Origin: Sulfurimonas sp.
GTDB taxonomy: Bacteria; Campylobacterota; Campylobacteria; Campylobacterales; Sulfurimonadaceae
Assembly: GCF_026988655.1 (NCBI RefSeq)
Contig: NZ_JALSKT010000085.1
Span: forward strand, 16,603-80,602
Reading direction: 5' to 3'
Length of the DNA: 64,000 bases
Of the stretch, positions 2,647 through 59,561 are shown one piece after another. The notes beneath the pieces are model-generated. The model was given only the letters and a program-made list of their open reading frames with translations. It was not told the origin of the DNA and did not search any database. The first letter of the stretch is position 1. Each line of letters begins with the position of its first letter. The translations under genes were made by a program, and so were the position numbers.

Positions 2647-3822
2647 ATGGAAAATTTATTTAATGATAAAAAAGCACAAGCCTGCAAGGATGATTTGGAT
2701 TTACGAGTATATACTTCTAATCTTTTAGGACAGGATAATGAGCTTGTTTTACATGGTGGTGGCAATACATCTCTCAAAAGTAAGGTTGGGGGAGAAGATA
2801 TTTTATTTGTCAAAGGAAGCGGTTGGGATCTCTCAGAAATTCAAAGAGAAGGTTTTTCTCCTGTAAGACTTGATGCACTTTTAGAGATGGCAAAAAGAGA
2901 AAGTTTAAGTGATTCTGAGATGGTAAAACTTCAGCGTGAAGCGATGATAGATGAAAAGGCTCCAAATCCTTCTGTTGAAGCCATACTGCATGCTTTAATA
3001 CCATATAAATTTATAGATCATACCCATGCTGATGCTGTGGTGACTATCTCAAACGCAGTAACGGGGAAAGAAAATATCGCAAAACTGTATCCTGATTTTT
3101 TGATAGTTGATTATGTTATGCCTGGCTTTGAGCTTGCACACAGAATTTACGAGATGACAAAAGATCTTGATTGGAAATCTATTGAGGGTATTATCTTACA
3201 TAATCATGGGATCTTTACCTTTGATGATGATGCAAAAATATCCTATGAGAAAATGATAAACGCAGTAGCAAGAGCAGAAAAGTTTTTAGATGAAAATGCT
3301 CTTGTACATATAGAACATAATTATGTACACAGTGAGTGTGACATAGCAAAGATAACGCGTATTTTTTCAGAGATAAAGGGATATGATGTCTCTATTAACA
3401 TCAATCAGTCTCCTTTAGCTGGATTTTATGCCTCTCAGCCTAATCTTAGAGAATTTGCATCACGTGGAGTTTTGACACCTGAGCATATCATCCGCACAAA
3501 AAGAGTTCCTCTTATTATGGAAGATACAGATTTAGAGGGTGGCATCATGAAGTATGCTGAGGCTTATCAAGCTTACTTTAAAGAATTTGCGACTGATGAA
3601 GTGATGCTCAATCCTGCACCAAATTATATGATCATTAAAAATCTTGCACTGATCTCTTTTGGAAAAGATAAACGTGAGGCAGCAATTGTTAATGATATAG
3701 TAGAACATACTATGCTAGCAGTTTTACGAGCTGATAAGTTAGGTGGTTACAAAAGTATTAGCTTAAAAGATAGTTTTGCGATGGAGTACTGGGAACTAGA
3801 ACAGGCTAAATTGAAAAAATAA
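2647..3822 (+). CDS. Class II aldolase/adducin family protein
   Basis: 391 residues. It shows the class II (zinc) aldolase signatures: GGGNTSLK near residue 38 for phosphate binding, HTHADAV near residue 125 and LHNHGIF near residue 180 supplying metal-binding His residues. The length exceeds single-domain aldolases (about 215 residues) and resembles the N-terminal half of long RhaD-type aldolase-dehydrogenase fusions, but no dehydrogenase domain follows. AGGA at 2637-2640 serves as ribosome-binding site. It is followed after two bases by the LsrK-type kinase, so a sugar 1- or 5-phosphate is the likely substrate. In E. coli phospho-AI-2 breakdown ends with LsrF, a different aldolase class, so this enzyme may be an analogous replacement. 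Two AAACGCAG copies lie in it (3051, 3258). Confidence 0.8.
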   Translation: MENLFNDKKAQACKDDLDLRVYTSNLLGQDNELVLHGGGNTSLKSKVGGEDILFVKGSGWDLSEIQREGFSPVRLDALLEMAKRESLSDSEMVKLQREAMIDEKAPNPSVEAILHALIPYKFIDHTHADAVVTISNAVTGKENIAKLYPDFLIVDYVMPGFELAHRIYEMTKDLDWKSIEGIILHNHGIFTFDDDAKISYEKMINAVARAEKFLDENALVHIEHNYVHSECDIAKITRIFSEIKGYDVSININQSPLAGFYASQPNLREFASRGVLTPEHIIRTKRVPLIMEDTDLEGGIMKYAEAYQAYFKEFATDEVMLNPAPNYMIIKNLALISFGKDKREAAIVNDIVEHTMLAVLRADKLGGYKSISLKDSFAMEYWELEQAKLKK

Positions 3823-3824
3823 TA

Positions 3825-5390
3825 ATGAATAAATACCTTATGGCAATAGACGCGGGAACAGGCAGTATCCGCGTTGTTATTTTTGATACACTGGGCAATC
3901 AAATCACAGCAGCACAAAAAGAGTGGACACACCTAGAAGAAGAGGGTGTGCGTGATTCTATGCGTTTTGACTTTGAAAACAACTGGATTTTAGTGTGTCA
4001 ATGTATACAAGAAGCCTTAAACGCAGTAAGCCTAAACGCAGTAGATATTTTAGCTGTGAGTGCAACAAGTATGCGTGAGGGGATTGTGCTTTATGATATA
4101 GAGGGTCATGAACTCTGGGCTGTAGCCAATGTAGATGCAAGAGCTGCCCAAGAAGTAAAATATCTCAAAGAACATTGTAGTGGTTTGGAAGAAGAATTTT
4201 ACCAAATATCGGGTCAAACTTTTGCACTTGGTGCTCTACCGCGTTTGTTATGGCTTAAAAACAATCGTCCTAAGATATATAAAAAAGTCGCACAACTCTC
4301 AATGATAGGTGATTGGATTTTAGCAAAACTCTCAGGTGTCATCGCAAGTGATCCAAGTAATGGCGGCACAACGGGTGTATTTTCCCTTTCTAAACGCAGC
4401 TTTATGAGCGAAATGGCAAAGCAAGTTGGATTAAAAACAGATATCTTCCCTCAAGTTTTAGAAGTAGGGACTCCGATGGGCTTTGTGACATCTAGTGCGG
4501 CTCAAGTAACTGGACTTAGTACAAAAACTCAAGTTGTTATGGGTGGCGGTGATGTGCAGCTGGGTTCTGCTGGACTAGGTGTGGTTGGGGTAAATCAAGT
4601 AGCCATTTTAGGTGGTTCTTTTTGGCAACAAGTCGTCAATATTCCTTCTCAAACGCAGCCACCAAAAGATATGGGCATACGAATAAATCCACATGTTATT
4701 GCAGGTTTAAGTCAAGCAGAGGGAATTACTTTTTTTAGTGGTTTGGTGATGCGTTGGTTTCGCGATGCTTTTTGTGAACTTGAAAAGCATGAAGCTACTA
4801 AACGCAGTTGTGATGTATATGAAATTTTAGAAGAAAAAGCCAAAGAAGTTCCCGTAGGTTCCTATGATATTTTGCCAATATTTTCAGACACTATGAAATA
4901 TGGCAAATGGTACCACGCCGCACCAAGCTTTTTAAATCTCAATCTAAACGCAGCAGAGTGTAATCGTGCGGCAATGTTTCGAAGCCTAGAAGAAAATGCA
5001 GCGATAGTTTCAAGTTTAAACCTTCAAAAGATTCAAAAATTTAGTGGCATTGAGATACAAGAGATAGTTTTTGCAGGTGGGGCAAGTAAAGGCGCATTAT
5101 GGTCACAGATACTTGCAGATGTGACTGGCTATAAAGTGAAAATTCCAAAAGTAACTGAAGCGACAGCTTTGGGTGCGGCAATGGCTGCTGGAGTAGGCTG
5201 TGGGATATATACAAGCCTTGCAAACGCAGCAAATGAGCTTGTAGTCTGGGATAAAGTTTACACGCCAAATCTTGAGAATAAGAAAGTTTATGACAGACTA
5301 AAAGTCAAATGGCAAAAGGCTTATGAAGTGCAATTAAAGCTTGTTGATGATAATATCACGAATTCAATGTGGAAAGCCCCCGGATTATAA
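3825..5390 (+). CDS. lsrK: LsrK-type autoinducer-2 kinase (FGGY family)
   Basis: 521 residues with FGGY-kinase features: N-terminal phosphate loop MAIDAGTGSIR, GGGDVQLG in the middle and the adenosine-binding FAGGASKGALWSQILADV near residue 415. Similarity to E. coli LsrK is unusually close, including SMREGIVLY, NVDARAA, LGGSFWQQVVN, RWFRDAFC, YHAAPSF and the C-terminal SMWKAPGL, so LsrK is preferred over xylulokinase or glycerol kinase. LsrK phosphorylates DPD (AI-2) in the cytoplasm using ATP. No Lsr importer or LsrR regulator is in the window. The gene is extraordinarily rich in AAACGCAG: seven copies in 1.57 kb (4019, 4034, 4392, 4651, 4800, 4946, 5222), read in three frames as N-A, K-R and T-Q dipeptides, suggesting tolerated in-frame additions. 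Confidence 0.87.
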   Translation: MNKYLMAIDAGTGSIRVVIFDTLGNQITAAQKEWTHLEEEGVRDSMRFDFENNWILVCQCIQEALNAVSLNAVDILAVSATSMREGIVLYDIEGHELWAVANVDARAAQEVKYLKEHCSGLEEEFYQISGQTFALGALPRLLWLKNNRPKIYKKVAQLSMIGDWILAKLSGVIASDPSNGGTTGVFSLSKRSFMSEMAKQVGLKTDIFPQVLEVGTPMGFVTSSAAQVTGLSTKTQVVMGGGDVQLGSAGLGVVGVNQVAILGGSFWQQVVNIPSQTQPPKDMGIRINPHVIAGLSQAEGITFFSGLVMRWFRDAFCELEKHEATKRSCDVYEILEEKAKEVPVGSYDILPIFSDTMKYGKWYHAAPSFLNLNLNAAECNRAAMFRSLEENAAIVSSLNLQKIQKFSGIEIQEIVFAGGASKGALWSQILADVTGYKVKIPKVTEATALGAAMAAGVGCGIYTSLANAANELVVWDKVYTPNLENKKVYDRLKVKWQKAYEVQLKLVDDNITNSMWKAPGL

Positions 5391-6440: not shown

Positions 6441-7253
6441 ATGCATATCACTGTTGTAATTCCCACTTACAATAGATATGAATTTTTAAGACGTGCACTC
6501 TACTCTGTACTCGATCAAAGCTATGCAGCATCTGAAATCATTGTCGTTGATGATGGTTCTACAGATAATACGGCTTCCATCAAAGAAGAATTTCCACAAG
6601 TAAAATACATCTATCAAAATAACGCTGGAGTCTCTCGTGCACGAAATCTTGGCATTGTAAACGCAGTGCATGAGTGGATAGCGTTTTTAGATTCTGATGA
6701 TACTTGGCAGAGAGATAAACTCAAAGAACAAGTAAACTTTCACCTACAAAACCCTACTATTTTGATGAGTTTTACAGATGAGAAGTGGATTCGTGATGAT
6801 AAGGAAGTGAAAATTCCTAAGAAATTTAAAAAGTATGGTGGAGAGATATTTGAAAAATCTCTCTCTTATTGTAATATTGCCCCTTCTTCTACCCTTATCC
6901 AGAAAAATCTTTTGGATGAAGTAGGGTTTTTTGATGAGAGTTTAGAAGTTTGTGAAGATTATGATTTATGGCTTCGTATTGCGATGAATTACACTATAGG
7001 TCTTGTGGATAAAAAACTCATCACAAAATATGCAGGACATAATGACCAACTCAGTTTTAAATACTGGGGGATGGATAGATTTCGCGTTTTGGCACTAGAA
7101 AAACTTTTATCTACTTGTGATAATGCTCAGCAAGTTGCACTTATTAAAAAAGAAGCACAGAAAAAGTATACACTCTTACTCAAAGGTGCACAGAAATATG
7201 ATAAAATACTAGAGATTAAAAATTATGAAAAAAAAATAGAGAGCTTTCAATGA
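6441..7253 (+). CDS. Family 2 glycosyltransferase
   Basis: 270 residues, GT-A fold. VVIPTYNR opens the protein, VVDDGSTDNT follows near residue 35, NAGVSRARNLGI near 60 and FLDSDDTW supplies the DxD-type nucleotide-sugar site near 85-90; EDYDLWLRI lies near 175. A TTG three bases earlier (6438) is also open, but ATG 6441 is the natural start. The final ATGA overlaps the start of pgi by four bases, implying translational coupling. The acceptor cannot be told; the neighbours pgi and ugd suggest surface polysaccharide synthesis. One AAACGCAG (6659) lies between RARNLGI and the DSDD block, coding N-A at a spot where the family usually has a short variable link. Confidence 0.85.
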   Translation: MHITVVIPTYNRYEFLRRALYSVLDQSYAASEIIVVDDGSTDNTASIKEEFPQVKYIYQNNAGVSRARNLGIVNAVHEWIAFLDSDDTWQRDKLKEQVNFHLQNPTILMSFTDEKWIRDDKEVKIPKKFKKYGGEIFEKSLSYCNIAPSSTLIQKNLLDEVGFFDESLEVCEDYDLWLRIAMNYTIGLVDKKLITKYAGHNDQLSFKYWGMDRFRVLALEKLLSTCDNAQQVALIKKEAQKKYTLLLKGAQKYDKILEIKNYEKKIESFQ

Positions 7254-8461
7254 CATATGCACACAACTTTAACCCGACAATTTCAGATGAGACAGTTTTT
7301 CAAGCAATTTTGGATGAAAAAGATGATATAGGTTACTATAATTTACCATTTCAAGATACTACTGCGTTTAAAGAGTACGCAAAAACGGTACAACAAAATA
7401 ACATCGTTGTTATCGGTATAGGTGGGAGTAGTTTAGGTACTTATGCTATTTATAAATTTTTAAAACATAGCAAAAATTTACAAAAGAAGTTGTTTTTTCT
7501 TGAGACAACAGATCCTATAGATATTCAGTCTAAAATCCAAATGATAGATTTAAAAGATACACTTTTTATAGTAATCTCAAAGTCGGGTACTACCGTTGAG
7601 ACAGTTTCCATATTTAAGTACATTAACTCTCTTATAAAATGTGATAAAAATAATACTGTGGTTATCACAGAAAATGATTCTAAACTCAATACATACGCTA
7701 AAATGCATGGCATGACTGCGTTTGAAATTCCTAAAAATGTAGGTGGAAGATTTTCTGTATTTTCTGCAGTAGGACTTTTACCTTTGGCGATTGTTGGCAT
7801 AGATATTGATGAACTTATGCGTGGCACAAAACGCATTTATGATGGCTTTTTTAGTGCAAATAAAACTGCTATTAAAGAGAGATTGCTCAATAAGGCACGT
7901 TTTTTAGTAGAGTATAAAAATAAATTTAATATAAATGTTATTTTCTCATACTCTTCACGACTAGAAGGCTTTAACAAGTGGTATATTCAGCTTTGGGGAG
8001 AGAGTCTTGGAAAGATTGATGTCAATGGCTCAAGAGCTGGACTGACACCTGTTGGTATCATTGGACCCATAGATCAGCATTCATTTTTACAGCTTATCAT
8101 AGAGGGAAGACGAGATAAAACAGTTACGGTAATTAAAGTAGAAAATTTTGAAAATGATTTACAAATACCAGATATCACCCTTGAAGGTTTAGAAGAGTTA
8201 GACTATCTCAATAACATGGAATTTTCTTCACTGATTAAAAACCAAGCTGATGCAACAATCGAGTCAATCAATAATCTTAAAGATATTCCTTGTGATGTTA
8301 TGACCATAGATGGAGTGTGTGAAACTGCCATTTCAAGTTTGATGTATGAATATGAACTTTTAACTTCACTATGTGCAAAATTTATGTATATAGATGCTTA
8401 TAATCAGCCCGGTGTAGAGAGTGGAAAAATCATTTTGAAGAAGAAGCTTCAAGGCAAATAA
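7250..8461 (+). CDS. pgi: Glucose-6-phosphate isomerase
   Basis: 403 residues, the short form common in Campylobacterota (E. coli type is about 550). IGIGGSSLGTYA near residue 57 and SKSGTTVETV near 110 are SIS-fold phosphate-binding loops; GGRFSVFSAVGLLPL near 165 is the PGI signature. QPGVESGKI near the C-terminus holds the catalytic region. It interconverts glucose-6-P and fructose-6-P. It starts inside the glycosyltransferase stop region (ATGA overlap). It carries AAACGCAG in reverse orientation at 7362 and 7716, both coding A-F. Confidence 0.92.
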   Translation: MTYAHNFNPTISDETVFQAILDEKDDIGYYNLPFQDTTAFKEYAKTVQQNNIVVIGIGGSSLGTYAIYKFLKHSKNLQKKLFFLETTDPIDIQSKIQMIDLKDTLFIVISKSGTTVETVSIFKYINSLIKCDKNNTVVITENDSKLNTYAKMHGMTAFEIPKNVGGRFSVFSAVGLLPLAIVGIDIDELMRGTKRIYDGFFSANKTAIKERLLNKARFLVEYKNKFNINVIFSYSSRLEGFNKWYIQLWGESLGKIDVNGSRAGLTPVGIIGPIDQHSFLQLIIEGRRDKTVTVIKVENFENDLQIPDITLEGLEELDYLNNMEFSSLIKNQADATIESINNLKDIPCDVMTIDGVCETAISSLMYEYELLTSLCAKFMYIDAYNQPGVESGKIILKKKLQGK

Positions 8462-9747: not shown

Positions 9748-10921
9748 CTATCACATGTCCTACAAATTTACTCATATTATCTAAAATATCTCCACCTTTT
9801 CTAAAACTTAGTCCACAAGCTTCATAAGCAAAAAATACTCCTGCTTGGTACTTCGCACCTTTTGCATCTTTTGGAAATTCTACAAACTCCTGATAAACTT
9901 TTTTATAATTGTCATATGGACCCGCAGTCGCTAGACTTGTAGTGCCATCAGCTTCAATTATTTTTGTATTTGCACCTTCTCTACCAAAAACAGGTTTTTC
10001 TACCTGTTTAACACCTTGAAGTGGCTCAAATGATGTTTGTAATAAGTAAGGAGAATCAGGAAATAATTTACTCAAAATTGCCATCATCCCTTTAGATTGA
10101 AAGAGTAGGGTATAGGCTGGATTAAGTATAATGGCTTTTTGATTCTCAATGATATTTGTGAGCGTCGTTGCCAACTCTGGTTCTTCTATGGCGATATCTT
10201 CCCATGGATAAAGTTTAAACCAGTATTCGTATTGGTTGCCCTCACTATCATAGATACCATTTTCATCAAAATGAACATTATGCAAAAACTCAAAACTCGT
10301 GACAAATCCCGCATCGGTTGCCATTTGTTGTAAAAGTCTTACTGTACTCTCTTCTTCATCATTGCCCTCTACGGAGGAAAAAAGTATCTTCCATCCATCA
10401 TAATTTGCATCAAAAGTATCTGTATCATCAAAGAGTGTTATAAGTCTTTTAAAGTTGTTAGATATGGCTTCATATACATTGTTAAATTGACTCTCTTCGT
10501 CCATATCATTGGACTTGAGTATTGCCCATTGGAGTAGAGCAGTCTCAAAAAGTGCTGTCGGTGTATCAGCATTAAACTCAATGAGTTTGATCTCTTGAGC
10601 ATCTATGCCACCAGCTAAATCAAAGCGACTGTAGATATGCCAATGTACATCATTTTCCCAACTTTTTTTGATAGTCTCAATAAGGTTAAACGGGATGCCT
10701 AAATCAAAAAAAAGATTGTTTTTAATTACATACTCAGCGGCTTCAACATACATATCATACAGAGTATTAGCCGCTTCATAATAAGCTTCTGCTTCTTGAG
10801 GCGTTATGGTAACTAGTTCATCGCTTATATATTTACTGCCATCACTATCTGTATGCCATGAAAAACCTATCTCATCTAAGGTGTCATCATCTACTGCGTT
10901 TACTTTTGTTGTTAGTATCAT
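9740..10921 (-). CDS. Glutathionylspermidine-synthase-like ATP-grasp ligase (YgiC/YjfC type)
   Basis: 393 residues matching the Gsp-synthase C-terminal ligase family, without the amidase domain of full-length Gsp. KPVFGREGANTKII near residue 320 is the ATP-grasp nucleotide-binding segment, and IEFNADTPTALFET near 115 is the family's active-site region. In true Gsp the domain activates a C-terminal glycine carboxylate and joins it to spermidine. The gene abuts (two bases) a lipoprotein gene ending in Gly-Gly, and in E. coli ygiC and yjfC likewise sit next to lipoprotein genes. A ligase acting on the lipoprotein C-terminus is therefore an attractive but unproved idea. One AAACGCAG (10894) lies at its N-terminus. 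Confidence 0.82.
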   Translation of the reverse strand: MILTTKVNAVDDDTLDEIGFSWHTDSDGSKYISDELVTITPQEAEAYYEAANTLYDMYVEAAEYVIKNNLFFDLGIPFNLIETIKKSWENDVHWHIYSRFDLAGGIDAQEIKLIEFNADTPTALFETALLQWAILKSNDMDEESQFNNVYEAISNNFKRLITLFDDTDTFDANYDGWKILFSSVEGNDEEESTVRLLQQMATDAGFVTSFEFLHNVHFDENGIYDSEGNQYEYWFKLYPWEDIAIEEPELATTLTNIIENQKAIILNPAYTLLFQSKGMMAILSKLFPDSPYLLQTSFEPLQGVKQVEKPVFGREGANTKIIEADGTTSLATAGPYDNYKKVYQEFVEFPKDAKGAKYQAGVFFAYEACGLSFRKGGDILDNMSKFVGHVIVS

Positions 10922-12431: not shown

Positions 12432-15400
12432 TGCTCATCTTTCATTTCATCAAGCGCTAAGATAAGTGCTCTTGCTGCACTGAGCGTTGTGAAGTAGGGG
12501 ATACTGCGTTTGAGAACTTCTTGACGGATCACAACGGCATCTTTTTTGCTGGTGTTATTATCTGAGGTATTAATCGCCATTGAAATTTCATCATTTTTCA
12601 TACTATCTTCAATATTTGGACGACCCTCAGAAATTTTCAATACAAGTTCACAAGCAATGCCAGCTTCTTCAATAATTTTTTGTGTTCCTTTTGTCGCTAC
12701 GAGTTTAAACCCATGTCTGATGAGACCGCTAGCAATCTCGGCAGCATGTTGTTTATCTGTATCGACAAAAGAGAGAAAACAAGTCCCAGTTGTTGGAATC
12801 TTATTTCCAGCACTCAGTTGTGCTTTTGCAAAACTTACACCAAAGTTTTTACTGATTCCCATAACTTCACCAGTTGATTTCATTTCAGGAGAAAGAACTA
12901 AATCTGCACCGTAGAGTTTATGGAAAGGAAATACTGCTTCTTTTACAGAAACATGCCCTTTTAAACGAGGACGACGTAGACCATTGACCTCTTCTACAAT
13001 ATTGTACTTATCATAAAAATCCAGAGAATCAACGAGTTTTTCTCCCATCATGACGCGTGTAGCAACTTTTGCAAGAGGCATACCTGTTGCTTTACTTACA
13101 AAAGGTACAGTACGAGAAGCTCGTGGGTTAACTTCTATAAGGTAAATTTCATCTTGATAGATTGCATATTGAACATTCACAAGACCCACTACACCAAGAC
13201 CAAGTGCAATAGTTTTCGTTTGTTGTTCAACTTTTTCTATCATTTGTTTACTTAAGTTCATTGGAGGAAGTGAACAAGCAGAGTCACCAGAATGAATTCC
13301 AGCTTCTTCTATGTGTTGCATAACAGAACCAATATAAACCTCTTTGCCATCAGAGATACAATCAACATCCAGCTCAATAGCTTGGTCAAGGAACTTATCA
13401 ATAAGTACAGGAGCTTCATTTGAAACACTAATCGCTAGAGCCATGTATTCATTTAACTCGTCATGGCTGTAAACAATCTTCATACCACGTCCACCTAAAA
13501 CAAATGAAGGACGCACAAGAACAGGAAAACCAATTTTTTCAGCGATTGGACCAGCTTCTTCTTTTTTGCGCGCTAAACCATTTTCAGGTTGTCTTAGACC
13601 ATGTTTTTTTACAAAATCAGAAAACTGCTCTCTATCTTCAGCTAAATCAATAATTGCTGATGGTGTTCCAGAAATTTTAGCACCAATTTTGGTGAGCGAA
13701 TCTGCAAGTTTTAGTGGTGTTTGTCCACCGAAATGTACGATAATTCCATCTGGTTGTTCATTTTCAATTACCTCTCTTACATGCTCAAAATCTATAGGCT
13801 CAAAGTAAAGCACATCAGAAGTATCATAGTCAGTAGAGACTGTTTCAGGGTTACAGTTATACATAATCGTCTCTATATCCATCTCTTTAAGGGCAAAGGC
13901 AGCATGGACACAACAGTAATCAAATTCAATCCCTTGTCCAATACGGTTAGGACCACCACCTAAGATAAGTACTTTTTTCTTCTCACTACTGCGTTTAGAA
14001 ACATTTGGTATTTTAGTAATGTTTGTTGTTGAGTAGAGATATGGTGTAAGTGCTTCAAATTCTGCTGCACAGGTATCGACTTCATTATACTCTAGATGTA
14101 CTGAGAGTTTTTTTCTTGCATCATAAACTTCGTTTTCATGTACTTGATGATCTGAGTTTTTTGTTATAAGTTGAGCTATACGTTTATCTGAAAAACCATC
14201 TACTTTTACATTTCTCATAAAGTCTGCATCAAAAAGGATTTTATCTGTAATAGTAGACTCTTTGTCTATCATCTCTTGCAATTGATATAAGAACCATGGG
14301 TCAATCGCACAAGTGTCAAACATATCTTCAACACTCATACCACGACGGAAACCCTCAGCAACATAGAGAATTCTTTCTGCATTTGGACGACGAATTTCAT
14401 GGCGAATAAACTCATCATCAGCATCTATCTCGTCAAAGCCACATAGACCAGTCTCAAGTGAGCAGAGTGCTTTTTGGACTGACTCTTTAAAAGTACGCCC
14501 TATAGCCATAACTTCACCAACAGATTTCATAGAAGTGCTAAGTGTACTTTGTGCTTCAGGGAATTTTTCAAATGTAAAACGAGGTATCTTTGTAACAACA
14601 TAATCAATGACCGGCTCAAACGCAGCAGGTGTCCCTGTAATATCATTTGTAATCTCATCAAGTGTAAAACCAACAGCTAAAAGTGTTGCAACTTTTGCTA
14701 TAGGGTAGCCCGTGGCTTTCGATGCTAGAGCGGAAGAGCGTGAAACACGAGGATTCATCTCGATAACAATCATACGACCAGTTTTAGGATCAATAGAAAA
14801 CTGAACATTTGAGCCTCCAGTATCAACACCAACCTCACGTAAAATTGCAAAAGAAGCGTCACGCATTCTTTGGTACTCTTTATCTGTAAGTGTAAGGGCA
14901 GGTGCTACTGTAATACTATCACCAGTATGTACACCCATAGGGTCAAAGTTTTCAATAGAGCAGACGATGATACAGTTGTCAGCTTTGTCACGAATAACTT
15001 CCATCTCATACTCTTTCCAGCCGAGCATAGATTCCATGATTTCGATTTCATTGACTGGAGATGCAGAGATTCCTTCTTGTGCGAGTTTTTTGAACTCTTC
15101 CATATTGTATGCTACACCAGAACCACCGCCAGCAAGTGTAAAAGAAGCGCGAGAAATTACAGGAAAACCAATCTCTTTGACAACTTCTATGGCCTCTTCA
15201 ACACTGTAAGCATTTCTACTTTTTGGTAAATCCATACCAATTTTTATCATTGCTTCATTAAAGAGATGTCTATCTTCACCTTTATTGATAGCTTTTGGAT
15301 CTGCACCTAAAAACTCTATCCCTTCAAGCATACCTTTTTCATGCATACTCATAGCAACATTAAGGGCTGTTTGTCCACCCATGGTAGGTAAAACAGCATC

Positions 15401-15732: not shown

Positions 15733-16479
15733 TTAGTACTTGAAAGTATAGATAAGCGAGAGCAGTCCCGAATAGATATATTTATCCTTGACTATAGGAC
15801 TATTATAAGCAGTTTGCGGGATATAATCTGCCCGTATATTTGCGAGTGTTGATAGGTTCTTGGTCAATGGATAGTTAATGTATGTTTGCAAACCTAAAAG
15901 TAAACCATCACTTGGAGTATAGGCTGGTCGTTGAGCCGTTGCCTCAGAGGTTTTTACACCATAATAATAATCCAAAAATTTTTGAGATTGGTAGATGGCT
16001 ATAAGGCTTGGATAAAAACTAAAATCTCCTAAATGATACTCATCACCGATTTCTGTTTTAACTATTAAGGAGTTGTATCTTCCAAGCATATCCGTGAGTA
16101 ACATCGTTTCAATATAGGCATCATGAAAGCTTGCACTAAAAGCAATACCGCCTTCAAAAGTAGTTTTTCGCTCATCCATGCCTTCTAAAGTTTTAGAATC
16201 ACTAGCTTTATAGCCATATGTTCTAGGCTGAGCAGTAAGAGAGAAACCCCAAGCATATGTATCCTCTTTCGCACCTAAAAAGTACATTCCAAAACGGCTC
16301 CAGCGAATATAAAAAAGAGAGTTATCAAAAAATATAACAGGAGAAGGAACAAAAATAGGCTTCGCACCTTCATAAGGCTGCGTTTGGATATAAGGTCCTA
16401 AACCTAGTGTTACTTTTTGTTTTGACTCTTGGGCGTTGAGACTTAGTATGATAAGCATGAAAATGAGAATATACTTCAT
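15733..16479 (-). CDS. MipA/OmpV family outer-membrane protein
   Basis: 248 residues beginning with a signal peptide (MKYILIFMLIILSLNAQ). The rest alternates polar and hydrophobic residues with many Tyr/Phe and ends in IYTFKY, typical of an outer-membrane beta barrel with a terminal aromatic. The LGPYIQTQPYEG start and the FFDNSLFYIRWSRFG segment match MipA/OmpV proteins. Members scaffold murein enzymes in E. coli or act as porin-like proteins; the position beside mreBC is compatible with a cell-envelope role but does not prove it. It overlaps mreC by four bases. One octamer copy at 16378. Confidence 0.8.
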   Translation of the reverse strand: MKYILIFMLIILSLNAQESKQKVTLGLGPYIQTQPYEGAKPIFVPSPVIFFDNSLFYIRWSRFGMYFLGAKEDTYAWGFSLTAQPRTYGYKASDSKTLEGMDERKTTFEGGIAFSASFHDAYIETMLLTDMLGRYNSLIVKTEIGDEYHLGDFSFYPSLIAIYQSQKFLDYYYGVKTSEATAQRPAYTPSDGLLLGLQTYINYPLTKNLSTLANIRADYIPQTAYNSPIVKDKYIYSGLLSLIYTFKY

Positions 16480-17243
16480 TTTACTCTCCTAATTAGATGA
16501 AAATAGTTTGGTTCATTTGATTTATAATAGGGCTCTACTACAGCATTTTGGTAGCCTTGTAGCGTTTTTACAGAAAGGACTTTTCCTACTTTTAATCCTT
16601 TAAAAAAGATATTATCAAGTCCAGAAGTTGTTACTTCATCACCTTTTTTGATACTAATCCAGCCTGAAATATAACTAACAATAATATTTTCATCATTATT
16701 TCCATGCGCAATTCCAGGTGCTTTGTTCTCTCCGATATTTACTGAGTAAGAACTCTGTATATCGTTGTTCATCAAAGCGAGAGCTCTGCCATTTTTTGGT
16801 ATTACGATTCCGGCTACAAATTCCTTATAGGTAAGTCCATAAATTTTTGAAGCATTATAGTCTGGTATCTCTATCCAAAGCCTATTTAAGTTGCCAAATT
16901 GCTCGTAAGCAATGGTACGTACAAGCTCAACTTGTGGATTAAATGTCAGGGTAGAATTGTTTTCTTTATAGAGATCAGCAAGCTCAGTTGCAAGTTGCTG
17001 TGATTGTAGATGTGAATTTTCGTAAGTTTGCAGTTGCTCTTTAAGTTCTTGAATCTGGGAAGCTTGAAAAAAATGTTTTTCAATTGTAGTGCTGATGTAG
17101 TTAGTAGTGTTGTGATAAGTAGTTTTTACTGCGTTTAGCGTAGAAATGATAGGGGGTTGCAATGTGTTTGAATAATAAATAGCACCCACAAAGAGTGCTA
17201 CTATAAGAGAAAAATAGCTAAATACTTGTTTATTCATTCTCAA
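16476..17243 (-). CDS. mreC: Rod shape-determining protein MreC
   Basis: 255 residues: one N-terminal membrane helix (about 8-26), a coiled-coil with QIQELKEQLQTYENS (about 62-95), then the beta-rich periplasmic core containing GISWIS-like and GDEVTTSGLDNIFFKGLKVG segments characteristic of MreC. It links cytoplasmic MreB to the wall-elongation enzymes. The frame overlaps the mreB end by 14 bases; an internal ATG at 17237 would reduce this. One octamer copy at 17129 codes for N-A early in the periplasmic part. Confidence 0.9.
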   Translation of the reverse strand: MRMNKQVFSYFSLIVALFVGAIYYSNTLQPPIISTLNAVKTTYHNTTNYISTTIEKHFFQASQIQELKEQLQTYENSHLQSQQLATELADLYKENNSTLTFNPQVELVRTIAYEQFGNLNRLWIEIPDYNASKIYGLTYKEFVAGIVIPKNGRALALMNNDIQSSYSVNIGENKAPGIAHGNNDENIIVSYISGWISIKKGDEVTTSGLDNIFFKGLKVGKVLSVKTLQGYQNAVVEPYYKSNEPNYFHLIRRVK

Positions 17244-21897: not shown

Positions 21898-21905
21898 ATT
21901 TTTTC

Positions 21906-22403: not shown

Positions 22404-22495
22404 TTTATACCTCTTGTATTTTATTTTTGAAATTATAGTGAAATTTTTATAAATATGTCTTGTACTTTTAAAATTAAGTTTGTGATTAAAATAGG

Positions 22496-52792: not shown

Positions 52793-53204
52793 TGCGTTTT
52801 CCATCAGCTTTTCCAGCTAAGGCTTTGCTTGCCATACCCATAACTTTTCCCATCTCTTTCATAGATGTTGCACCTGATTTTTCTACGAGTGCTTTTACTT
52901 CATTTGTTAGCTCTTCATCACTGAGTTGTTTTGGAAGATATGTTTCATAGTAAGATATCTCGTCAAGTTCAATTTGCATCAAGTCCTCACGATTTGCTTC
53001 TTTATATTGCGAAGCTGCATCATTTCTACGTTTGACTTGCGTTTGAATAATTTTGATGACATCTTCATCTGTGAGTTCTTTTCTTTCATCCACCTCTATT
53101 TGTTTAAAAGCACTTGTAAGTAAACGCAGTGCATCTCTTTTTTTAGTATCTTTGGCTTTCATAGCCTCTTTTACATCTTGATTGATTGTTTCTCTTAATG
53201 TCAT
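52758..53204 (-). CDS. yqeY: GatB/YqeY domain protein
   Basis: 148 residues, full length for YqeY. DVKEAMKAKDTKKRDALRLL at the start, VKRRNDAASQYKEANREDL near 60 and GKVMGMASKALAGKADGKRI (in part) at the C-terminus match the family, which shares the tail domain of the GatB amidotransferase subunit. It may assist tRNA-dependent amidation, though stand-alone YqeY function is not settled. Terminator at its 3' end. Octamer at 53122. Confidence 0.9.
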   Translation of the reverse strand: MTLRETINQDVKEAMKAKDTKKRDALRLLTSAFKQIEVDERKELTDEDVIKIIQTQVKRRNDAASQYKEANREDLMQIELDEISYYETYLPKQLSDEELTNEVKALVEKSGATSMKEMGKVMGMASKALAGKADGKRISDAVKKALAS

Positions 53205-54005: not shown

Positions 54006-55392
54006 TCTTGCTCTGATTACTGCGTTTAGCTCGCTGTATGGAGAAGATTTTGAAGATTTTAAACGTGTACAAAACACTGCGTTTGCAAAATATAAAGATG
54101 CAAACGATAATGCTTTTGAAGCCTATTTAAAAAAACAGTGGCAGGAGTATAATGCTTTTGCATCAAAAGCTTTGTATAAAAAAGAAAAACCAAAAGTCAT
54201 TACTCCTGCGAGTCAAAGAGAGCCTTTAGCCGTAGGACCTGCCGTTCGCATTAATGTTGAAAAAGAGAAACAAGAGAGAGTTAAAGCAATGCCAAAGCTT
54301 GAAAAAAAAGCAGCTTTAGTTGTGCATTATTTTGGGACTAATCTGAGTTTCATTCAAAACACGCAGCTCTCTAAGGCTAAGTTTTATCCACCTAAGCAAA
54401 AAGGTGTCTTAAACTTTTTTAGTGTTATGGCAGCAAGTGATTATCAGCCAACTCTTTTAGAGATAAAAAAAATCTGTGATGACTTAAAGCTCAATGACTG
54501 GGGTTTGTATCTTCTCGTACAAAAACTCTCTCAAAAATATTTTAGCAATGATGATGATAAAAAACTCTATAGTTGGTTTATACTTAATAAACTAGGGTAT
54601 AACACAAAAGTAGGGCTAAAAGAGGGGCATATTGTCTTGTTGAGTCTGACAAAACAGCAGGTATATGCTACTCCAGGGTACAGACTTGCAGGTGAGAAGT
54701 TTTATAACTTTGATGCTAAACGCAGTGAAAGAAAAAGTATATATACCTATGAGCAAAATTATCCAAACGCAGTAAAAGCACTTGATTTTAGTTTACCTAC
54801 ATTGCCTCTCTTAGCAAAAGAGATGCAAGAAGAAAGTAAAACTTTTCGTATGGAAGGTAAAAACTATACGCTTTCTTATAGATACAACAAAAATCTTATA
54901 AATTTTATGAATACATATCCGCAAGTAGATTATCAAGTTTATTTTGATGCACCTTTAGAAGAAGATACTTATAGAGATATAGCACTTGGTATGAAGCCAT
55001 ATTTGGATGGGAAAAAAGCAAATATTGCACTGAATTTTGTTCTTCGTTTCGTTCAAAGTGGATTTGAGTATGAACGTGATAAAGAACAGTTTGGTAAAGA
55101 AAAAGTCATGTTTGCACAAGAAACACTCTTTTATACAAAGTCTGATTGTGAGGATAGAGCTGTTTTATATGCTAAGCTTGTAAAAAAGCTTTTTGGCATA
55201 GGTGTCGTTGGAGTGAAATATCCAAATCATATGGCAACAGCTTTATATATTCCGCTTCAAGGTGATAGTGTGAAGTTAAATGGAAGAAGATTTGTAGTCG
55301 CTGACCCCACATTTATCAATGCAAATGTGGGAGAGAGTATGCCTAAGTATAAGTCTATCATACCTGAGAGTTTTATAGTTGTAAAGAACTAG
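53950..55392 (+). CDS. Exported transglutaminase-like protein, function unknown
   Basis: 480 residues. Start GTG 53950 lies inside flgH; no better start precedes the hydrophobic signal (LYRLFGLSSLALITAFSSLYG). The N-terminal half is Lys-rich and unrecognised. The C-terminal part has a transglutaminase-like triad: Cys in FYTKSDCEDRAVLYA near 400, His in KYPNHMATALY near 432 and Asp in VVADPTFINA near 458. Such domains are often cysteine peptidases or cross-linkers in the envelope. The 56-base overlap ties its expression to flgH, so a role in flagellar or wall remodelling is possible. Octamers at 54020, 54077, 54718 and 54765, four in 1.4 kb. Confidence 0.72.
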   Translation: MQQNKDGERKLYRLFGLSSLALITAFSSLYGEDFEDFKRVQNTAFAKYKDANDNAFEAYLKKQWQEYNAFASKALYKKEKPKVITPASQREPLAVGPAVRINVEKEKQERVKAMPKLEKKAALVVHYFGTNLSFIQNTQLSKAKFYPPKQKGVLNFFSVMAASDYQPTLLEIKKICDDLKLNDWGLYLLVQKLSQKYFSNDDDKKLYSWFILNKLGYNTKVGLKEGHIVLLSLTKQQVYATPGYRLAGEKFYNFDAKRSERKSIYTYEQNYPNAVKALDFSLPTLPLLAKEMQEESKTFRMEGKNYTLSYRYNKNLINFMNTYPQVDYQVYFDAPLEEDTYRDIALGMKPYLDGKKANIALNFVLRFVQSGFEYERDKEQFGKEKVMFAQETLFYTKSDCEDRAVLYAKLVKKLFGIGVVGVKYPNHMATALYIPLQGDSVKLNGRRFVVADPTFINANVGESMPKYKSIIPESFIVVKN

Positions 55393-55393: not shown

Positions 55394-56932
55394 TTAGTAG
55401 TCTATAGCGACCTTGTATGTTGGATCATCTTCTGAGTAAGTACAGTGTGGTCCAGCTTTTTTAAGTATCTTTTTACAATCTTGGCTGAGATGACGAAGGA
55501 GAAGGTTTTTCCCTGAGTCTTCGTATTTTTTGACCATGGCATCAATGGCTTCAACACCTGAAAAATCCATAACTCTAGCCTTTTTAAAATCAATAACAAC
55601 CTTTGGAGGATCTTGTAAAACATCAAAGTTGTCTGAGAATGTTGTCGCACTTCCAAAAAAGAGTGGACCCTCAAGCTCATACACTTTTGTGCCATCTTCT
55701 TCAGTGTATGTTTTTGTCCAGATACGTGCATGCTTCCAAGCAAATACAAGAGCAGAGATAATAACACCAGCAATAACAGCTACAGCTAAATCTTCCACAA
55801 CAGTTATAATGGTGACAACAACCATAACAAAAACATCAGCACGAGGCATATGTTTGAGATGAGAGAAACTTGACCACTCAAAGGTTCCAATACTCACCAT
55901 AAACATAATCCCGACTAAAACACCAACAGGAATTGCATTGAGTACATCTGTCATAGAGACGACGAGGATGATAAGCCCAACTGCTGCTGTAAATGATGAA
56001 AGACGTCCAAGACCACCTGAAGTATAGTTGATGATAGATTGACCAATCATCGCACAACCTGCCATTCCACCAAAAAATCCTGATGCGATATTTCCACATC
56101 CTAAGGCAATACACTCTTGGTTTCCACTTCCTCTTACTCCACTCATCTCATCTAAAACAGCAAGGGTAAGAAGGGATTCTATGAGTCCAACAAGTGCCAT
56201 GATTATGGCATAAGGTAAAACCATCATAATAGCATCAAGACTAAAAAGTGTATCAGGGATAATAAGATGAGGCAGTTGTCCTTTAAATTCTGACAAATCA
56301 GCTAACTCTCCAACAGTAAGCGTGTTAATACTTGTAAGGTAAACGACAAGTGTTAAGAGCACGATAGCTACAAGTCCTGATGGCACTGCTTTCGTGTATT
56401 TTGGTAAAAAGTACATAATGAGCATGGTAATAACTACAATGATATACATACTCATCCCTTGACCATCAAAAAATTTAAACTGTGCCATAGCAATGACAAT
56501 TGCAAGCCCATTGACAAAACCATAAAGCGCAGGTTGGGGAACAAGACGGATAAATTTACCAAATTTTAAAACGCCTACTGCCACTTGAATAGCACCCGCT
56601 ATGATAGTAGCAAGTAAAATATAGTTGAGCATATGGATATAAAGCTCATCTCCACTCATACCAAGTGCGCTAAGTTTTGCATTTGCCTCAAGAACAAGTC
56701 CAACGATGACAACAGCCACACTTCCCGTTGCCCCACTAATCATACCCGGTTTACCACCGATGATAGCAGTGATAAGCCCTAGTATAAACGCAGTATAAAG
56801 CCCAACAATTGGACTAACCCCTGCGATAAAACTAAAAGCGATAGCTTCAGGAACCAGTGCAACTGCAACGACAAGACCAGAGAGTATATCGTTTTTAATG
56901 TTTGGAGATGTATACTTTTTTATATCAAACAA
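55394..56932 (-). CDS. SulP family anion transporter with STAS domain
   Basis: 512 residues. About 10-14 membrane segments cover 20-400, beginning DILSGLVVAVALVPEAIAFS, the SulP entry motif. A cytoplasmic STAS domain occupies about 425-512 (PPKVVIDFKKARVMDFSG). Substrates in the family are sulfate, bicarbonate or dicarboxylates; bicarbonate import would suit an autotroph but the sequence does not decide. Convergent with the transglutaminase-like gene, one base between stops. Octamer at 56786. Confidence 0.9.
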   Translation of the reverse strand: MFDIKKYTSPNIKNDILSGLVVAVALVPEAIAFSFIAGVSPIVGLYTAFILGLITAIIGGKPGMISGATGSVAVVIVGLVLEANAKLSALGMSGDELYIHMLNYILLATIIAGAIQVAVGVLKFGKFIRLVPQPALYGFVNGLAIVIAMAQFKFFDGQGMSMYIIVVITMLIMYFLPKYTKAVPSGLVAIVLLTLVVYLTSINTLTVGELADLSEFKGQLPHLIIPDTLFSLDAIMMVLPYAIIMALVGLIESLLTLAVLDEMSGVRGSGNQECIALGCGNIASGFFGGMAGCAMIGQSIINYTSGGLGRLSSFTAAVGLIILVVSMTDVLNAIPVGVLVGIMFMVSIGTFEWSSFSHLKHMPRADVFVMVVVTIITVVEDLAVAVIAGVIISALVFAWKHARIWTKTYTEEDGTKVYELEGPLFFGSATTFSDNFDVLQDPPKVVIDFKKARVMDFSGVEAIDAMVKKYEDSGKNLLLRHLSQDCKKILKKAGPHCTYSEDDPTYKVAIDY

Positions 56933-56933
56933 A

Positions 56934-59561
56934 TCATGCCTTTAGTGAGCTGAGTTGCTCTAAAACTTTTTCGCGTTTTGTTTGTGCATCTGCTAAGAGC
57001 GTTCTGTTTTTTTCTAAAACTTCTTCAGGTGCATTGGCTACAAAACGTTCATTACCTAGCATACCGTTGAGTTTTCCTATCTCTTTTTGTAACTTTTCAT
57101 CTTGTTTTGTGAGTTTGTTGATGATAGGTGTTAAATCTATAGAGTCAGTAGGGATGAATGTCTCACATTTATCAGCAATATCACTTACTGCGTTTGGAAT
57201 TTTTTCTTCACTAAATATTACTTCTTCAACCTTTGCAAGTCTTGCAATGAAAGGTAACATCATTGCTTTATCTTTATCACTGAGCCCGTCGATTTTTACA
57301 TAAGCTTTAGCTATTTTTTGGTTTGCTAAATCTACCAATACTTTTGCACGACGAATGGAAACAATAGCGTCCATAATTATCTCAAATTTCGCTTCTTCTT
57401 TACGTTGCTTAACCTTATGTGGAAACTTTTTAATCATAATAGAGTCTGAATCTTCAAGCGTTGTTCCGCTAAGCTCATGATATAGATGCTCCGTAATAAA
57501 TGGCATAAATGGATGTAGGAGTTTCATCGCTTCTTTGAAGATAGCTCCGAGTTCTACTATTGAACTTTTGTCTGCTTTACTAAGTTCAATTCCCCAGTCA
57601 CAAAATTCATTCCATAAAAATCTATACATAACAAGCGCTGCATCATTAAATTTGTATTCATCCAGATTTGCACGTACTTCTTTTGTTGCAAAATTAAGGC
57701 GACTCATCATATAACGACCCAGGTCTGTTTCAACACAAAAACCACTCAAATCAGGAAATGTTTCTACATTCATTTGTAGATATTTTGAAGCGTTGTAGAG
57801 TTTGTTTGTAAAGTTACGGTTGAGTTCAAGTTTGTCTTGACTCATACGAATATCACGACCCTGTGCAGCAGAGATTGCGAGTGTGAAACGCAGTATATCC
57901 GCGCTATATTGGTTGACCATATCAAGAGGGTCTATAACGTTTCCTTTTGATTTAGACATTTTTTGACCGTGTTCATCACGAACAAGGGCATGAAGATAGA
58001 TGTGATTGAATGGAAGTTCTCCATTGAAATGTTCTCCCATCATCATCATTCGAGCGACCCAAAAGAAAAGTATGTCAAAGCCTGTAATAAGAAGGGTATT
58101 TGGATAGAAATCTTTCATGTCATTTGATTCAAAAAGTTTGTCCATTTCAGTGTCGCCATGACCCCAACCTAAAGTTGAAAAAGGCCATAAAGCAGAACTA
58201 AACCATGTGTCAAGAACATCAGGATCTTGTGTTAGATTTTTTGATGTACATTTTGGACAAGATTCAGGATGCTCTTCTTGAGAAGCAAATTCATGCCCAC
58301 AATCATCACAGTAAAAGACAGGTATTTGATGTCCCCACCAAAGCTGACGTGAAATACACCAGTCGCGAAGCTCTCCCATCCAAGAGTTGTAAGAGTTTAT
58401 CCAGTGTGGTGGAAAAAACTTTGCTTCACCTGCGTTTGTTTTTTCTATAGATTTATCAGCCACTTCTTTACGAACAAACCATTGTTTTGAGATATAAGGC
58501 TCAACGATGTTTTTACATCTATAGCAATGTCCCACTTGATGTTTATGGTCTTCAATCTTGACTATATAGCCTTCTTCTTGCAATCTTTGTACGATAGGCT
58601 CTCTAGCTTCAAGACGTTCCATGCCTTTAAACTCTCCAGCATAGTCGTTTAAGATCCCTTTTTCATCAAACACTGTAATGAAATCTAAGTCATGGCGTTT
58701 TCCCACTTCGTAGTCATTTTGATCATGTGCCGGAGTTACTTTTACAACACCTGTTCCAAAATCCATATCAACATAAGAATCAGCAATGATTTTTATCTTT
58801 TTATCTAAAAGTGGAAGAAGAACTTCTTTACCTATGATATCTTTGTAACGCGCATCATCAGGATGAACCATAACAGCAGTATCTCCGAAATATGTCTCTG
58901 GTCTAGTCGTAGCGACTTCAACGCTTCCACTTCCATCTGCAAAATGGTAAAGCATATGGTAAAACTTACCATCTTCTTCTTCGTGTTCTACTTCGATATC
59001 TGAGAGTGCACCATCATGTGTACACCAGTTGACCATGTAGTTTCCACGAATGATAAGACCTTCATTATAAAGATGAACAAAAGCCTCTTTTACAGACTTT
59101 TGTAGTCCTTCATCCATAGTAAAGCGTTCTCTCTCCCATGCTGGACTCACACCGATGTGGCGTAACTGTTGTGTCATAATCCCAGCAGATTCTTCCTTCC
59201 AAGCCCAAACTTTTTCTAAAAAAGCTTCTCTGCCTATCTCTTCTTTTGTTATGCCTTGTTCTAGGAGTTGTTTCTCTACTACATTTTGTGTAGCGATTCC
59301 CGCATGATCAGTTCCAGGTTGCCAAAGTGTTTTGTATCCATCCATACGTTTGTAACGAGTGATGATATCTTGGAGTGTAAATGTAAGTGCATGACCGATA
59401 TGCAAACGACCGGTAACATTTGGTGGTGGCATCATGATAGAGAAATTTTTTCCCTCTTCTTGAATGACTTTGTTCCCGTCTATTTCAAAGTACTTTCTAT
59501 CTTCCCAGATTTTATAGTATTTGTTCTCAGTTTCTTGTGGATTGTATTTGTTTTCTGACAT
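56934..59561 (-). CDS. valS: Valyl-tRNA synthetase
   Basis: 875 residues, class I synthetase. HIGH motif in PPPNVTGRLHIGHALTF near residue 43, editing domain with TTRPETYFGDTAVMVHP near 215, KMSKS in GQKMSKSKGNVIDP near 520, and a C-terminal coiled-coil (about 810-875). A zinc-ribbon-like pair of CxxC motifs near 400-430 (YCDDCG, SCPKC) is also present. It ends one base after the sulP start region, so the two may be co-transcribed. Octamers at 57188, 57886 and 58430. Confidence 0.96.
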   Translation of the reverse strand: MSENKYNPQETENKYYKIWEDRKYFEIDGNKVIQEEGKNFSIMMPPPNVTGRLHIGHALTFTLQDIITRYKRMDGYKTLWQPGTDHAGIATQNVVEKQLLEQGITKEEIGREAFLEKVWAWKEESAGIMTQQLRHIGVSPAWERERFTMDEGLQKSVKEAFVHLYNEGLIIRGNYMVNWCTHDGALSDIEVEHEEEDGKFYHMLYHFADGSGSVEVATTRPETYFGDTAVMVHPDDARYKDIIGKEVLLPLLDKKIKIIADSYVDMDFGTGVVKVTPAHDQNDYEVGKRHDLDFITVFDEKGILNDYAGEFKGMERLEAREPIVQRLQEEGYIVKIEDHKHQVGHCYRCKNIVEPYISKQWFVRKEVADKSIEKTNAGEAKFFPPHWINSYNSWMGELRDWCISRQLWWGHQIPVFYCDDCGHEFASQEEHPESCPKCTSKNLTQDPDVLDTWFSSALWPFSTLGWGHGDTEMDKLFESNDMKDFYPNTLLITGFDILFFWVARMMMMGEHFNGELPFNHIYLHALVRDEHGQKMSKSKGNVIDPLDMVNQYSADILRFTLAISAAQGRDIRMSQDKLELNRNFTNKLYNASKYLQMNVETFPDLSGFCVETDLGRYMMSRLNFATKEVRANLDEYKFNDAALVMYRFLWNEFCDWGIELSKADKSSIVELGAIFKEAMKLLHPFMPFITEHLYHELSGTTLEDSDSIMIKKFPHKVKQRKEEAKFEIIMDAIVSIRRAKVLVDLANQKIAKAYVKIDGLSDKDKAMMLPFIARLAKVEEVIFSEEKIPNAVSDIADKCETFIPTDSIDLTPIINKLTKQDEKLQKEIGKLNGMLGNERFVANAPEEVLEKNRTLLADAQTKREKVLEQLSSLKA

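What the first reader, a model, noticed from the sequence alone, without database searches (positions are those of the whole stretch)
3051..58437. AAACGCAG is about 30-fold over-represented: candidate uptake, recombination or segregation signal
By hand about 39 copies of this octamer are seen on both strands in 64 kb, against about 1.3 expected for 33% A and 17% C or G. Copies use all coding frames and both orientations relative to genes, so codon or amino-acid bias cannot explain them. Flanks are constrained too (pyrimidine on each side). Orientation is nearly balanced (22 versus 17), which speaks against a strictly polar chromosome-segregation signal and is more like a DNA-uptake sequence or Chi-like site. 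I know of no described uptake sequence of this form in Campylobacterota.
Basis: partly seen in the sequence, partly recalled or inferred. Interest (0 to 1): 0.9.

Follow-up and report, generated by a model that had tools for sequence, protein, structure and literature searches.

The report
Self-DNA uptake tags with dialects
The sulfur bacterium in this window carries about 1,200 copies of an eight-letter DNA word, and related species carry other words, some at the very same places in the same genes; these words likely act as species tags that let the cells take up DNA of their own kind, a trick so far described mainly in two other bacterial families.

Summary
AAACGCAG occurs 39 times in the window (22/17 by strand; shuffles 1.5) and 1,207 times in the 1.97-Mb genome (634/573; reversed control 29). 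The nearest relatives are Sulfurimonas (Campylobacterota). Related clades lack it but carry another word: AAACGCCA, CTCACGCA, palindromic TACATGTA, AGATGCWA or CACATGCC. Five words assign a dialect to 82 of 135 genus genomes (hand tally) and hardly co-occur, except AAACGCAG with AAACGCCA. In codon-aligned orthologues the words replace each other at the same position and register (template A/T-N-A-Y-G-Y-N-N), clearly for some dialect pairs and not for others. Sites are conserved 45-64% in three close same-dialect genomes (other octamers 14-16%) but 2 of 336 in other-dialect genomes. No replication-strand polarity exists (226/430 here; 84/186 in a sister species), which rules out KOPS and argues against Chi. 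ComEC is found in 123 of 135 genomes; pilins precede priA in 28 of 28 regions holding priA; a cts-like operon is present here too. Best reading: uptake sequences with dialects, as in Neisseriaceae but unrelated in sequence. Uptake is untested, and no receptor was identified: three pilin candidates did not track dialect.

The parts
3051..3058 (+). AAACGCAG site
3258..3265 (+). AAACGCAG site
4019..4026 (+). AAACGCAG site
4034..4041 (+). AAACGCAG site
4392..4399 (+). AAACGCAG site
4651..4658 (+). AAACGCAG site
4800..4807 (+). AAACGCAG site
4946..4953 (+). AAACGCAG site
5222..5229 (+). AAACGCAG site
6659..6666 (+). AAACGCAG site
7362..7369 (-). AAACGCAG site
7716..7723 (-). AAACGCAG site
10894..10901 (-). 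AAACGCAG site
12504..12511 (-). AAACGCAG site (in the carB gene)
13989..13996 (-). AAACGCAG site (in the carB gene)
14618..14625 (+). AAACGCAG site (in the carB gene)
16378..16385 (-). AAACGCAG site
17129..17136 (-). AAACGCAG site
19901..19908 (-). AAACGCAG site
20165..20172 (+). AAACGCAG site
20945..20952 (+). AAACGCAG site
21743..21750 (-). AAACGCAG site, first arm of an intergenic inverted pair
21761..21768 (+). AAACGCAG site, second arm of an intergenic inverted pair
34010..34017 (+). AAACGCAG site
34562..34569 (+). AAACGCAG site
39456..39463 (-). AAACGCAG site
40055..40062 (-). AAACGCAG site
44197..44204 (-). AAACGCAG site
46044..46051 (+). AAACGCAG site (in a mutS-family gene)
46169..46176 (-). 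AAACGCAG site (in a mutS-family gene)
53122..53129 (+). AAACGCAG site
54020..54027 (-). AAACGCAG site
54077..54084 (-). AAACGCAG site
54718..54725 (+). AAACGCAG site
54765..54772 (+). AAACGCAG site
56786..56793 (+). AAACGCAG site
57188..57195 (-). AAACGCAG site (in the valyl-tRNA synthetase gene)
57886..57893 (+). AAACGCAG site (in the valyl-tRNA synthetase gene)
58430..58437 (-). AAACGCAG site (in the valyl-tRNA synthetase gene)

Best explanation
AAACGCAG is the window genome's version of a short word that differs between Sulfurimonas clades, and it likely works as a DNA uptake sequence, a self tag that would make a competent cell prefer DNA of its own kind. Shown: genome-wide over-representation on both strands without replication polarity, about one copy per 1.6 kb; alternative words in sister clades that hardly co-occur except AAACGCAG with AAACGCCA; replacement of one word by another at the same position and register of some orthologous genes; conservation only within a dialect; presence of ComEC, priA-linked pilins and a cts-like type II/type IV-pilus operon. 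Inferred: a surface receptor of the competence pilus binds Y-AAACGCAG-Y (about 10 bp), fragments carrying it are pulled in and recombined, so alleles with the word spread and alleles without it are lost. A change of receptor specificity then re-writes the words in place, site by site, which gives dialects. Not shown: transformation of Sulfurimonas, word-dependent uptake, and the receptor's identity.
For: enrichment; alternative words; genome-wide counts; no polarity; dialects follow clades: 7 changes on the ComEC tree against 19.1 shuffled; conserved 9/16, 5/11, 7/11 in close same-dialect genomes against 14-16% for other octamers; 2 of 336 in other-dialect genomes; in-register replacement: a genome's own word in 185 of 7,218 cells against 45 of 28,872 for the same words in third-dialect genomes; competence genes; inverted pairs at 40 bp or less, 10 against 3.2 expected, in this genome. 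The one good assembly without ComEC, G132, carries none of the five words. Precedent: eight Neisseriaceae dialects with a shared core (PMC3630211, passages).
Against: No receptor found: the priA-linked pilin, a 215-aa pilin and a 300-aa minor pilin do not track dialect (judged by eye and by identity, no formal test). No excess of one-mismatch copies in this genome (473 against 553 expected), although decay of sites should leave some; G017 does show one (285 against 191). ComEC does not discriminate: it is missing in 8 of 82 genomes with a word and in 4 of 53 without (hand tally). One dialect is palindromic, unlike any uptake sequence known to me. Inverted pairs are not enriched in G017 (0 against 1.6). 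In the best-known relative, C. jejuni, self-recognition rests on methylated RAATTY (PMC10046745). The register match is not universal: same-register hits are zero in 8 of 30 ordered dialect pairs (A-D, D-A, B-C, C-B, C-D, D-C, C-E, E-C), and A-E is weak on unique sites (4 of 200, with 7 at two other offsets).
Confidence: 0.75

Rival explanations
1. A Chi-type recombination hotspot that an AddAB/RecBCD-like enzyme recognises.
For: Short word, about one per 1.6 kb, mostly in genes and shared by sister species; Chi words differ between bacteria (PMC3630211, passage).
Against: No bias to the G-rich, presumed leading strand (84/186; 226/430), while Chi is usually co-oriented with replication (recalled). 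One dialect is a palindrome. Several words within one genus, some swapping in register, would need repeated re-targeting of an important repair enzyme. AddAB/RecBCD genes were not searched here.
Confidence: 0.08
2. A highly iterated word of the cyanobacterial HIP1 kind, kept up by a mutation, repair or methylation bias without any role in DNA uptake.
For: Strand-symmetric, clade-limited and palindromic in one dialect; one related locus is enriched in CGATCGCA, which resembles HIP1 (HIP1 recalled). No excess of near-miss copies in this genome.
Against: Five of six words are not palindromes; words replace each other in register in orthologues for several dialect pairs; a mutational bias does not readily explain a pyrimidine-flanked 10-bp footprint or the alternation between clades.
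Confidence: 0.1
3. Uptake specificity by methylation, as in C. jejuni: the word is the target of a solitary methyltransferase and the modified base is what the uptake machine reads.
For: C. jejuni imports only DNA with CtsM-methylated RAATTY (PMC10046745 and PMC8468864, passages); phylum and cts-like machinery are shared.
Against: In the passages read the C. jejuni motif is called frequent, not a rare word raised above chance; restriction and methylation sites are usually avoided, not enriched (recalled). No methyltransferase was tested against dialect here.
Confidence: 0.06
4. A chromosome-segregation (KOPS-like) or composition/codon artefact.
For: Frames are used unequally.
Against: No orientation switch across the GC-skew change of a nearly closed chromosome (48+/54- before, 48+/36- after); both strands and all six frames used; at background in many genomes of the same genus; z-score 94.6 against 20.1 for the best unrelated octamer.
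Confidence: 0.01

Closest known systems
DNA uptake sequence (DUS) dialects of Neisseriaceae, receptor ComP
   Same: About 1 word per 1-2 kb, both strands, a different dialect in each clade with a shared core (CTG there; A-Y-G-Y here), clade-congruent distribution (PMC3630211 passages).
   Different: Unrelated sequence and phylum; a palindromic dialect; no ComP counterpart identified; uptake not demonstrated.
Uptake signal sequence (USS) of Pasteurellaceae, receptor predicted to be ComN/PpdA
   Same: Genome-wide non-polar word of 8-10 bp in a bacterium with type IV pilus-like competence genes; one orientation commoner in genes (125 against 83; PMC2346458 abstract).
   Different: Different word and phylum; no 1-mismatch excess in this genome. 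The ComN paper (PMC12616744) was seen in search listings only.
CtsM-methylated RAATTY recognition of Campylobacter jejuni
   Same: Same phylum, cts-like machinery, a pilin gene before priA (Cj0683 there, needed for uptake), self-recognition at the first uptake step (PMC10046745, PMC8468864 passages).
   Different: There the mark is a methyl group on a frequent hexamer; here a word is enriched 20- to 40-fold and changes between clades.
Chi sites and KOPS
   Same: Short, genome-wide, shared by relatives.
   Different: Those are polar with replication (recalled); this word is not.
HIP1 of cyanobacteria (recalled)
   Same: Highly iterated octamer, strand-symmetric.
   Different: HIP1 is one palindrome; here several mostly non-palindromic words alternate, some in register.

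Membership tests
DNA uptake sequences (DUS/USS) | One short word massively over-represented genome-wide | tested here: met
   1,207 against 29 reversed control; 430 against 18.4 in 678 kb, top z-score.
DNA uptake sequences (DUS/USS) | Both strands, no replication polarity | tested here: met
   634/573; 84/186 on the presumed leading strand of G017; 226/430 on the G-richer strand.
DNA uptake sequences (DUS/USS) | Dialects that follow clades and share a core | tested here: met
   82 of 135 genus genomes carry one of five words (tallied by hand); 7 tree changes against 19.1 shuffled; in-register replacement for about half of the ordered dialect pairs. The core A-Y-G-Y was noticed first and register-tested afterwards; support for dialect D is thin.
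DNA uptake sequences (DUS/USS) | Host has a competence machinery | tested here: met
   ComEC in 123 of 135 genomes; cts-like operon in 19 of 20 fetched regions, cut by a contig end in the other (regions chosen by a secretin hit), and in this genome; pilins before priA in 28 of 28 regions that hold priA.
DNA uptake sequences (DUS/USS) | A pilin-type receptor that changes with the dialect | tested here: inconclusive
   Pilins exist, but the three candidates examined do not follow dialect.
DNA uptake sequences (DUS/USS) | Inverted pairs, often at terminators | tested here: inconclusive
   10 against 3.2 in this genome (P 0.0015), 0 against 1.6 in G017.
DNA uptake sequences (DUS/USS) | DNA with the word is taken up preferentially | not testable with these tools
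   Needs a transformation or uptake assay.
Chi sites | Bias to the leading strand | tested here: not met
Chi sites | Modulates AddAB/RecBCD | not testable with these tools
   Biochemistry needed.
KOPS | Strong polarity that switches at dif | tested here: not met
   no switch across the GC-skew change between the 0.9 and 1.0 Mb samples of G017 (tested on its own word, CTCACGCA).
HIP1-like palindromes | Palindromic octamer | tested here: not met
   AAACGCAG and four other words are not palindromes; only TACATGTA is.
Restriction-modification site | Site avoided in the host genome | tested here: not met
   Strong excess, not avoidance.

The most novel reading that the evidence does not exclude
A third, independent origin of sequence-tagged bacterial sex: Sulfurimonas and its relatives carry one evolving uptake signal with at least six dialects, including a palindromic one, re-written in place in orthologous genes each time the receptor changes, so that dialects would partition gene exchange among species living side by side at vents and in sediments.
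Probability: 0.68. Interest if true: 0.9.

Novelty: new variant of a known kind. Interest (0 to 1): 0.83.

Why it matters
Uptake sequences are described mainly in two families, Neisseriaceae and Pasteurellaceae. A third group in another phylum, with more than 80 genomes carrying one of several dialects, would allow long-debated questions to be tested comparatively: do uptake words exist for the recipient's benefit or spread by drive, how does a receptor change specificity, and do dialects isolate species? It would also give a practical key: DNA for transforming Sulfurimonas would need the right word. The type strain S. autotrophica OK10T, whose published length of 2,153,198 bp equals genome G002 here, carries the palindromic dialect.

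Tried and rejected
Type II secretion operon as the uptake machine: of 30 genomes searched with its secretin, 20 have a full-length match and G116 a broken one, but strong-dialect genomes G002, G008, G017, G023, G063, G066, G106 and G133 have only a distant secretin and G025 none, so rejected. Pilins as receptor: the priA-linked pilin (27 sequences aligned from 36 genomes, the rest missed by my text filter or outside the pieces) mixes dialects by eye; a 215-aa pilin (searched with a 170-residue fragment) is present in 21 of 30 genomes and absent from strong A genomes G074 and G086; the 300-aa minor pilin is in 28 of 30 and its identity follows relatedness. Tandem repeats that mimic enrichment (L069, L039, by position; L085, by its equal counts) were set aside. 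CAGCTTCA (L043) and TTGAAGAG (L071, L072) were set aside as strand-biased. The reversed-pattern control is poor for AGATGCWA, which has a background near 200 per Mb in nearly every genome; only 15 clear outliers (at least about 480 per Mb; next highest about 340) were counted. Chi, KOPS, HIP1, restriction-site and codon readings: see rivals. Structure prediction was not used, since no receptor candidate passed.

Limits: the genus dialect tally (A 30, C 18, E 27, B 8, F 15; union 82 of 135) was read by hand from the tables with the rule at least 60 per Mb (genome sizes as rounded there) and at least 3 times the reversed control (F: the outlier gap). 53 genomes carry none of these five words at that level. 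Register cells are not independent; unique-site counts are given beside them. Some A genomes showed no conserved site (G054 0/6, G069 0/8, G090 0/2, L038 0/5). Nine rows without an assigned word (0 of 135 sites) and the mixed genome G001 (1 of 17) are not in the 336. Paper lists were capped (8 to 20 rows shown of up to 104), so absence is claimed only for the term pairs that returned zero papers.
Full report
OBSERVATION. The window holds 39 AAACGCAG (22 +, 17 -; shuffles 1.5). The whole genome (1.97 Mb, 87 contigs) holds 634 + 573 = 1,207, against 29 for the reversed pattern. In the 678 kb I held, it is the most enriched of 31,343 strand-merged octamers (430 against 18.4 under order-2 Markov, z 94.6; the best unrelated word has z 20.1). 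The footprint is Y-AAACGCAG-Y with weak further bias. 208 of 221 sites are coding, as the 94% coding fraction predicts; all six frames occur, with preference for those reading Asn-Ala and Ala-Phe. One-mismatch copies are not in excess (473 against 553).

ORGANISM. The closest relatives of the window's carB gene carry the name Sulfurimonas; the window's own record is not named.

OTHER SPECIES, OTHER WORDS. AAACGCAG varies from 2,331 copies (G109) to background among 135 genus genomes. De novo octamer ranking in 80 carB regions and 35 ComEC regions of other genomes showed other words, each on both strands: AAACGCCA (C), CTCACGCA (B), CACATGCC (D), the palindrome CTTACATGTAAG/CTACATGTAG (E), AGATGCWA (F); one search shows flanks and positions for most. 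Genome-wide counts confirm them: C up to 693, E up to 1,764 half-sites ACATGTAR, B up to 962, D 337-1,668 in the 6 genomes where it was first seen and 5-53 in the 10 others searched, F 935-2,593 in 15 of 135. By the hand tally described under Tried and rejected, 82 of 135 genomes have an assigned word. E and F do not overlap another word; B overlaps A only in G017 (A 141, borderline); A and C coexist in 15 genomes.

ONE SIGNAL, MANY DIALECTS. All six words fit A/T-N-A-Y-G-Y-N-N. That was noticed after the fact, so I tested it on independent evidence: codon-aligned orthologues between genomes of different dialects. The word of the second genome often sits at offset 0, same orientation: A-B 6 of 211 sites (background 0.10 per offset), A-C 13 of 186 (0.01), A-F 13 of 190 (0.23), E-F 10 of 119 (0.21), F-E 9 of 90 (0.26), B-A 5 of 84 (0.07), C-A 5 of 22 (0.01). 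Offset 0 is the highest or tied highest of 82 offset-orientation classes in 15 of 30 ordered pairs, and in E-F second by one to the palindrome's mirror image. It is zero in 8 of 30 (A-D, D-A, B-C, C-B, C-D, D-C, and C-E and E-C with no hits at all), and weak for A-E (4 of 200; background 1.09; 7 at two other places). A-F also has an unexplained second peak in opposite orientation (11 at -4). In cells, a genome's own word is in register in 185 of 7,218, against 45 of 28,872 for the same words in genomes of a third dialect (odds ratio 17; cells not independent). For A sites: the E word in 11 of 1,047 cells of E genomes and 0 of 1,116 cells of B, C, D and F genomes.

CONSERVATION. AAACGCAG sites of this genome are kept in 9 of 16, 5 of 11 and 7 of 11 places in the close same-dialect genomes G074, G086 and G076, where 14-16% of other octamers are kept. 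In genomes of dialects B, C, D, E and F, 2 of 336 aligned places are kept, although 7-16% of other octamers are (sum made by hand over 23 genomes or loci, G009 and G013 counted as F). More distant A genomes lie between (for example G109 5 of 18, G037 5 of 21), some at zero.

PHYLOGENY. On a ComEC tree with 42 labelled rows (A and C pooled), four labels need 7 changes (least possible 3; shuffled mean 19.1, lowest 14 of 300). The A clade of this genome falls into one group of 13 with the S. autotrophica E clade and the B pair (support 91/97, below the tool's star). A/C, E and F need 5, 4 and 3 changes, so each was gained or lost more than once. Some long branches (G089, G090, G098, G048, G047) are unsure.

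POLARITY. G017 is nearly closed (2.03 of 2.1 Mb in one contig): 20 evenly spaced 20-kb samples show the GC-skew switch, and its word CTCACGCA lies 84 of 186 times on the G-rich, presumed leading strand (P 0.21). This genome: 226 of 430 on the locally G-richer strand (P 0.31).

MACHINERY. ComEC is found in 123 of 135 genus genomes and in 78 of 79 good assemblies; by hand it is missing in 8 of 82 genomes with a word (incomplete assemblies, 54-90% complete) and 4 of 53 without. An operon (GspF-like protein, GspE-like ATPase with MshEN domain, two small proteins, AAA ATPase, secretin, small proteins with one weak T2SSM match) lies in 19 of 20 regions fetched because a secretin hit pointed there; the twentieth (G063) is cut by its contig end; G025 had no secretin hit. 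This genome has it at L112:10015-19404. I call it cts-like from gene order, which resembles ctsE-ctsX-ctsP-ctsD with consecutive locus tags in C. jejuni (PMC8308473, passage), not from sequence comparison with C. jejuni. One to three pilins lie just upstream of priA (named by NCBIfam) in 28 of 28 fetched pieces that hold priA, of 35, and in this genome. That is the position of the pilin-like Cj0683, which C. jejuni needs for uptake (PMC10046745, passages). These are the natural candidates for a receptor, but their sequences do not follow dialect by eye, nor do two other pilins. The receptor is open.

INTERPRETATION. Non-polar, clade-specific, mutually replacing words, maintained within a dialect, in genomes with competence genes, match uptake sequences closely; Neisseriaceae have eight such dialects sharing a three-base core (PMC3630211, passages). 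KOPS is excluded and Chi opposed by the missing polarity and by the palindromic dialect. A HIP1-like mutational word and a methylation-read variant of uptake remain possible. I found no test of uptake in Sulfurimonas: no paper of the open PMC library holds 'Sulfurimonas' with 'uptake sequence', none holds 'Campylobacterota' with 'DNA uptake sequence' or the octamer as a word, and the one paper with 'Sulfurimonas', 'natural competence' and 'DNA uptake' is about universal stress proteins (listing only). The capped lists showed nothing on it either. Subscription papers and preprints are not in that library.

Noticed in passing
L070 (Helicobacteraceae bacterium isolate GLR69): CGATCGCA 9 copies against 0.1 expected in 21.6 kb, both strands; resembles cyanobacterial HIP1 and may be a further dialect or a different iterated word.
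   Followed up: partly
L106 (Candidatus Thiovulum imperiosus): ACCTCATC 16 copies against 0.4 expected in 21.7 kb, 7/9 by strand; a possible uptake-type word outside Sulfurimonas.
   Followed up: partly
window 21761-34010: A 12.2-kb stretch without any AAACGCAG (mean spacing 1.6 kb), although it holds ordinary-looking genes such as an acetyl-CoA synthetase-like gene.
   Followed up: no
L170:12091-14574 (own genome): The DnaB helicase gene carries Hint and LAGLIDADG domains, that is an intein, just before ComEC.
   Followed up: no
window and many of the carB loci: GGTGGTGG (11 copies against 0.5 in the window) is among the top octamers of many loci including Arcobacter ones; it fits the GNTGGTGG Chi form (recalled), but glycine-rich coding may explain it.
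   Followed up: no
G000:C55:15061-15837 and G000:C22:1544-2320: Two near-equal ComEC matches in the window's assembly, probably a strain-duplicate contig in a metagenome bin.
   Followed up: no
L085: About 40 copies of a repeat containing GAACCGAAACA in one carB region, perhaps a CRISPR or tandem array.
   Followed up: no
G017 (genus search): AAACGCAG 111 forward against 30 reverse in a B-dialect genome, probably a local repeat.
   Followed up: no
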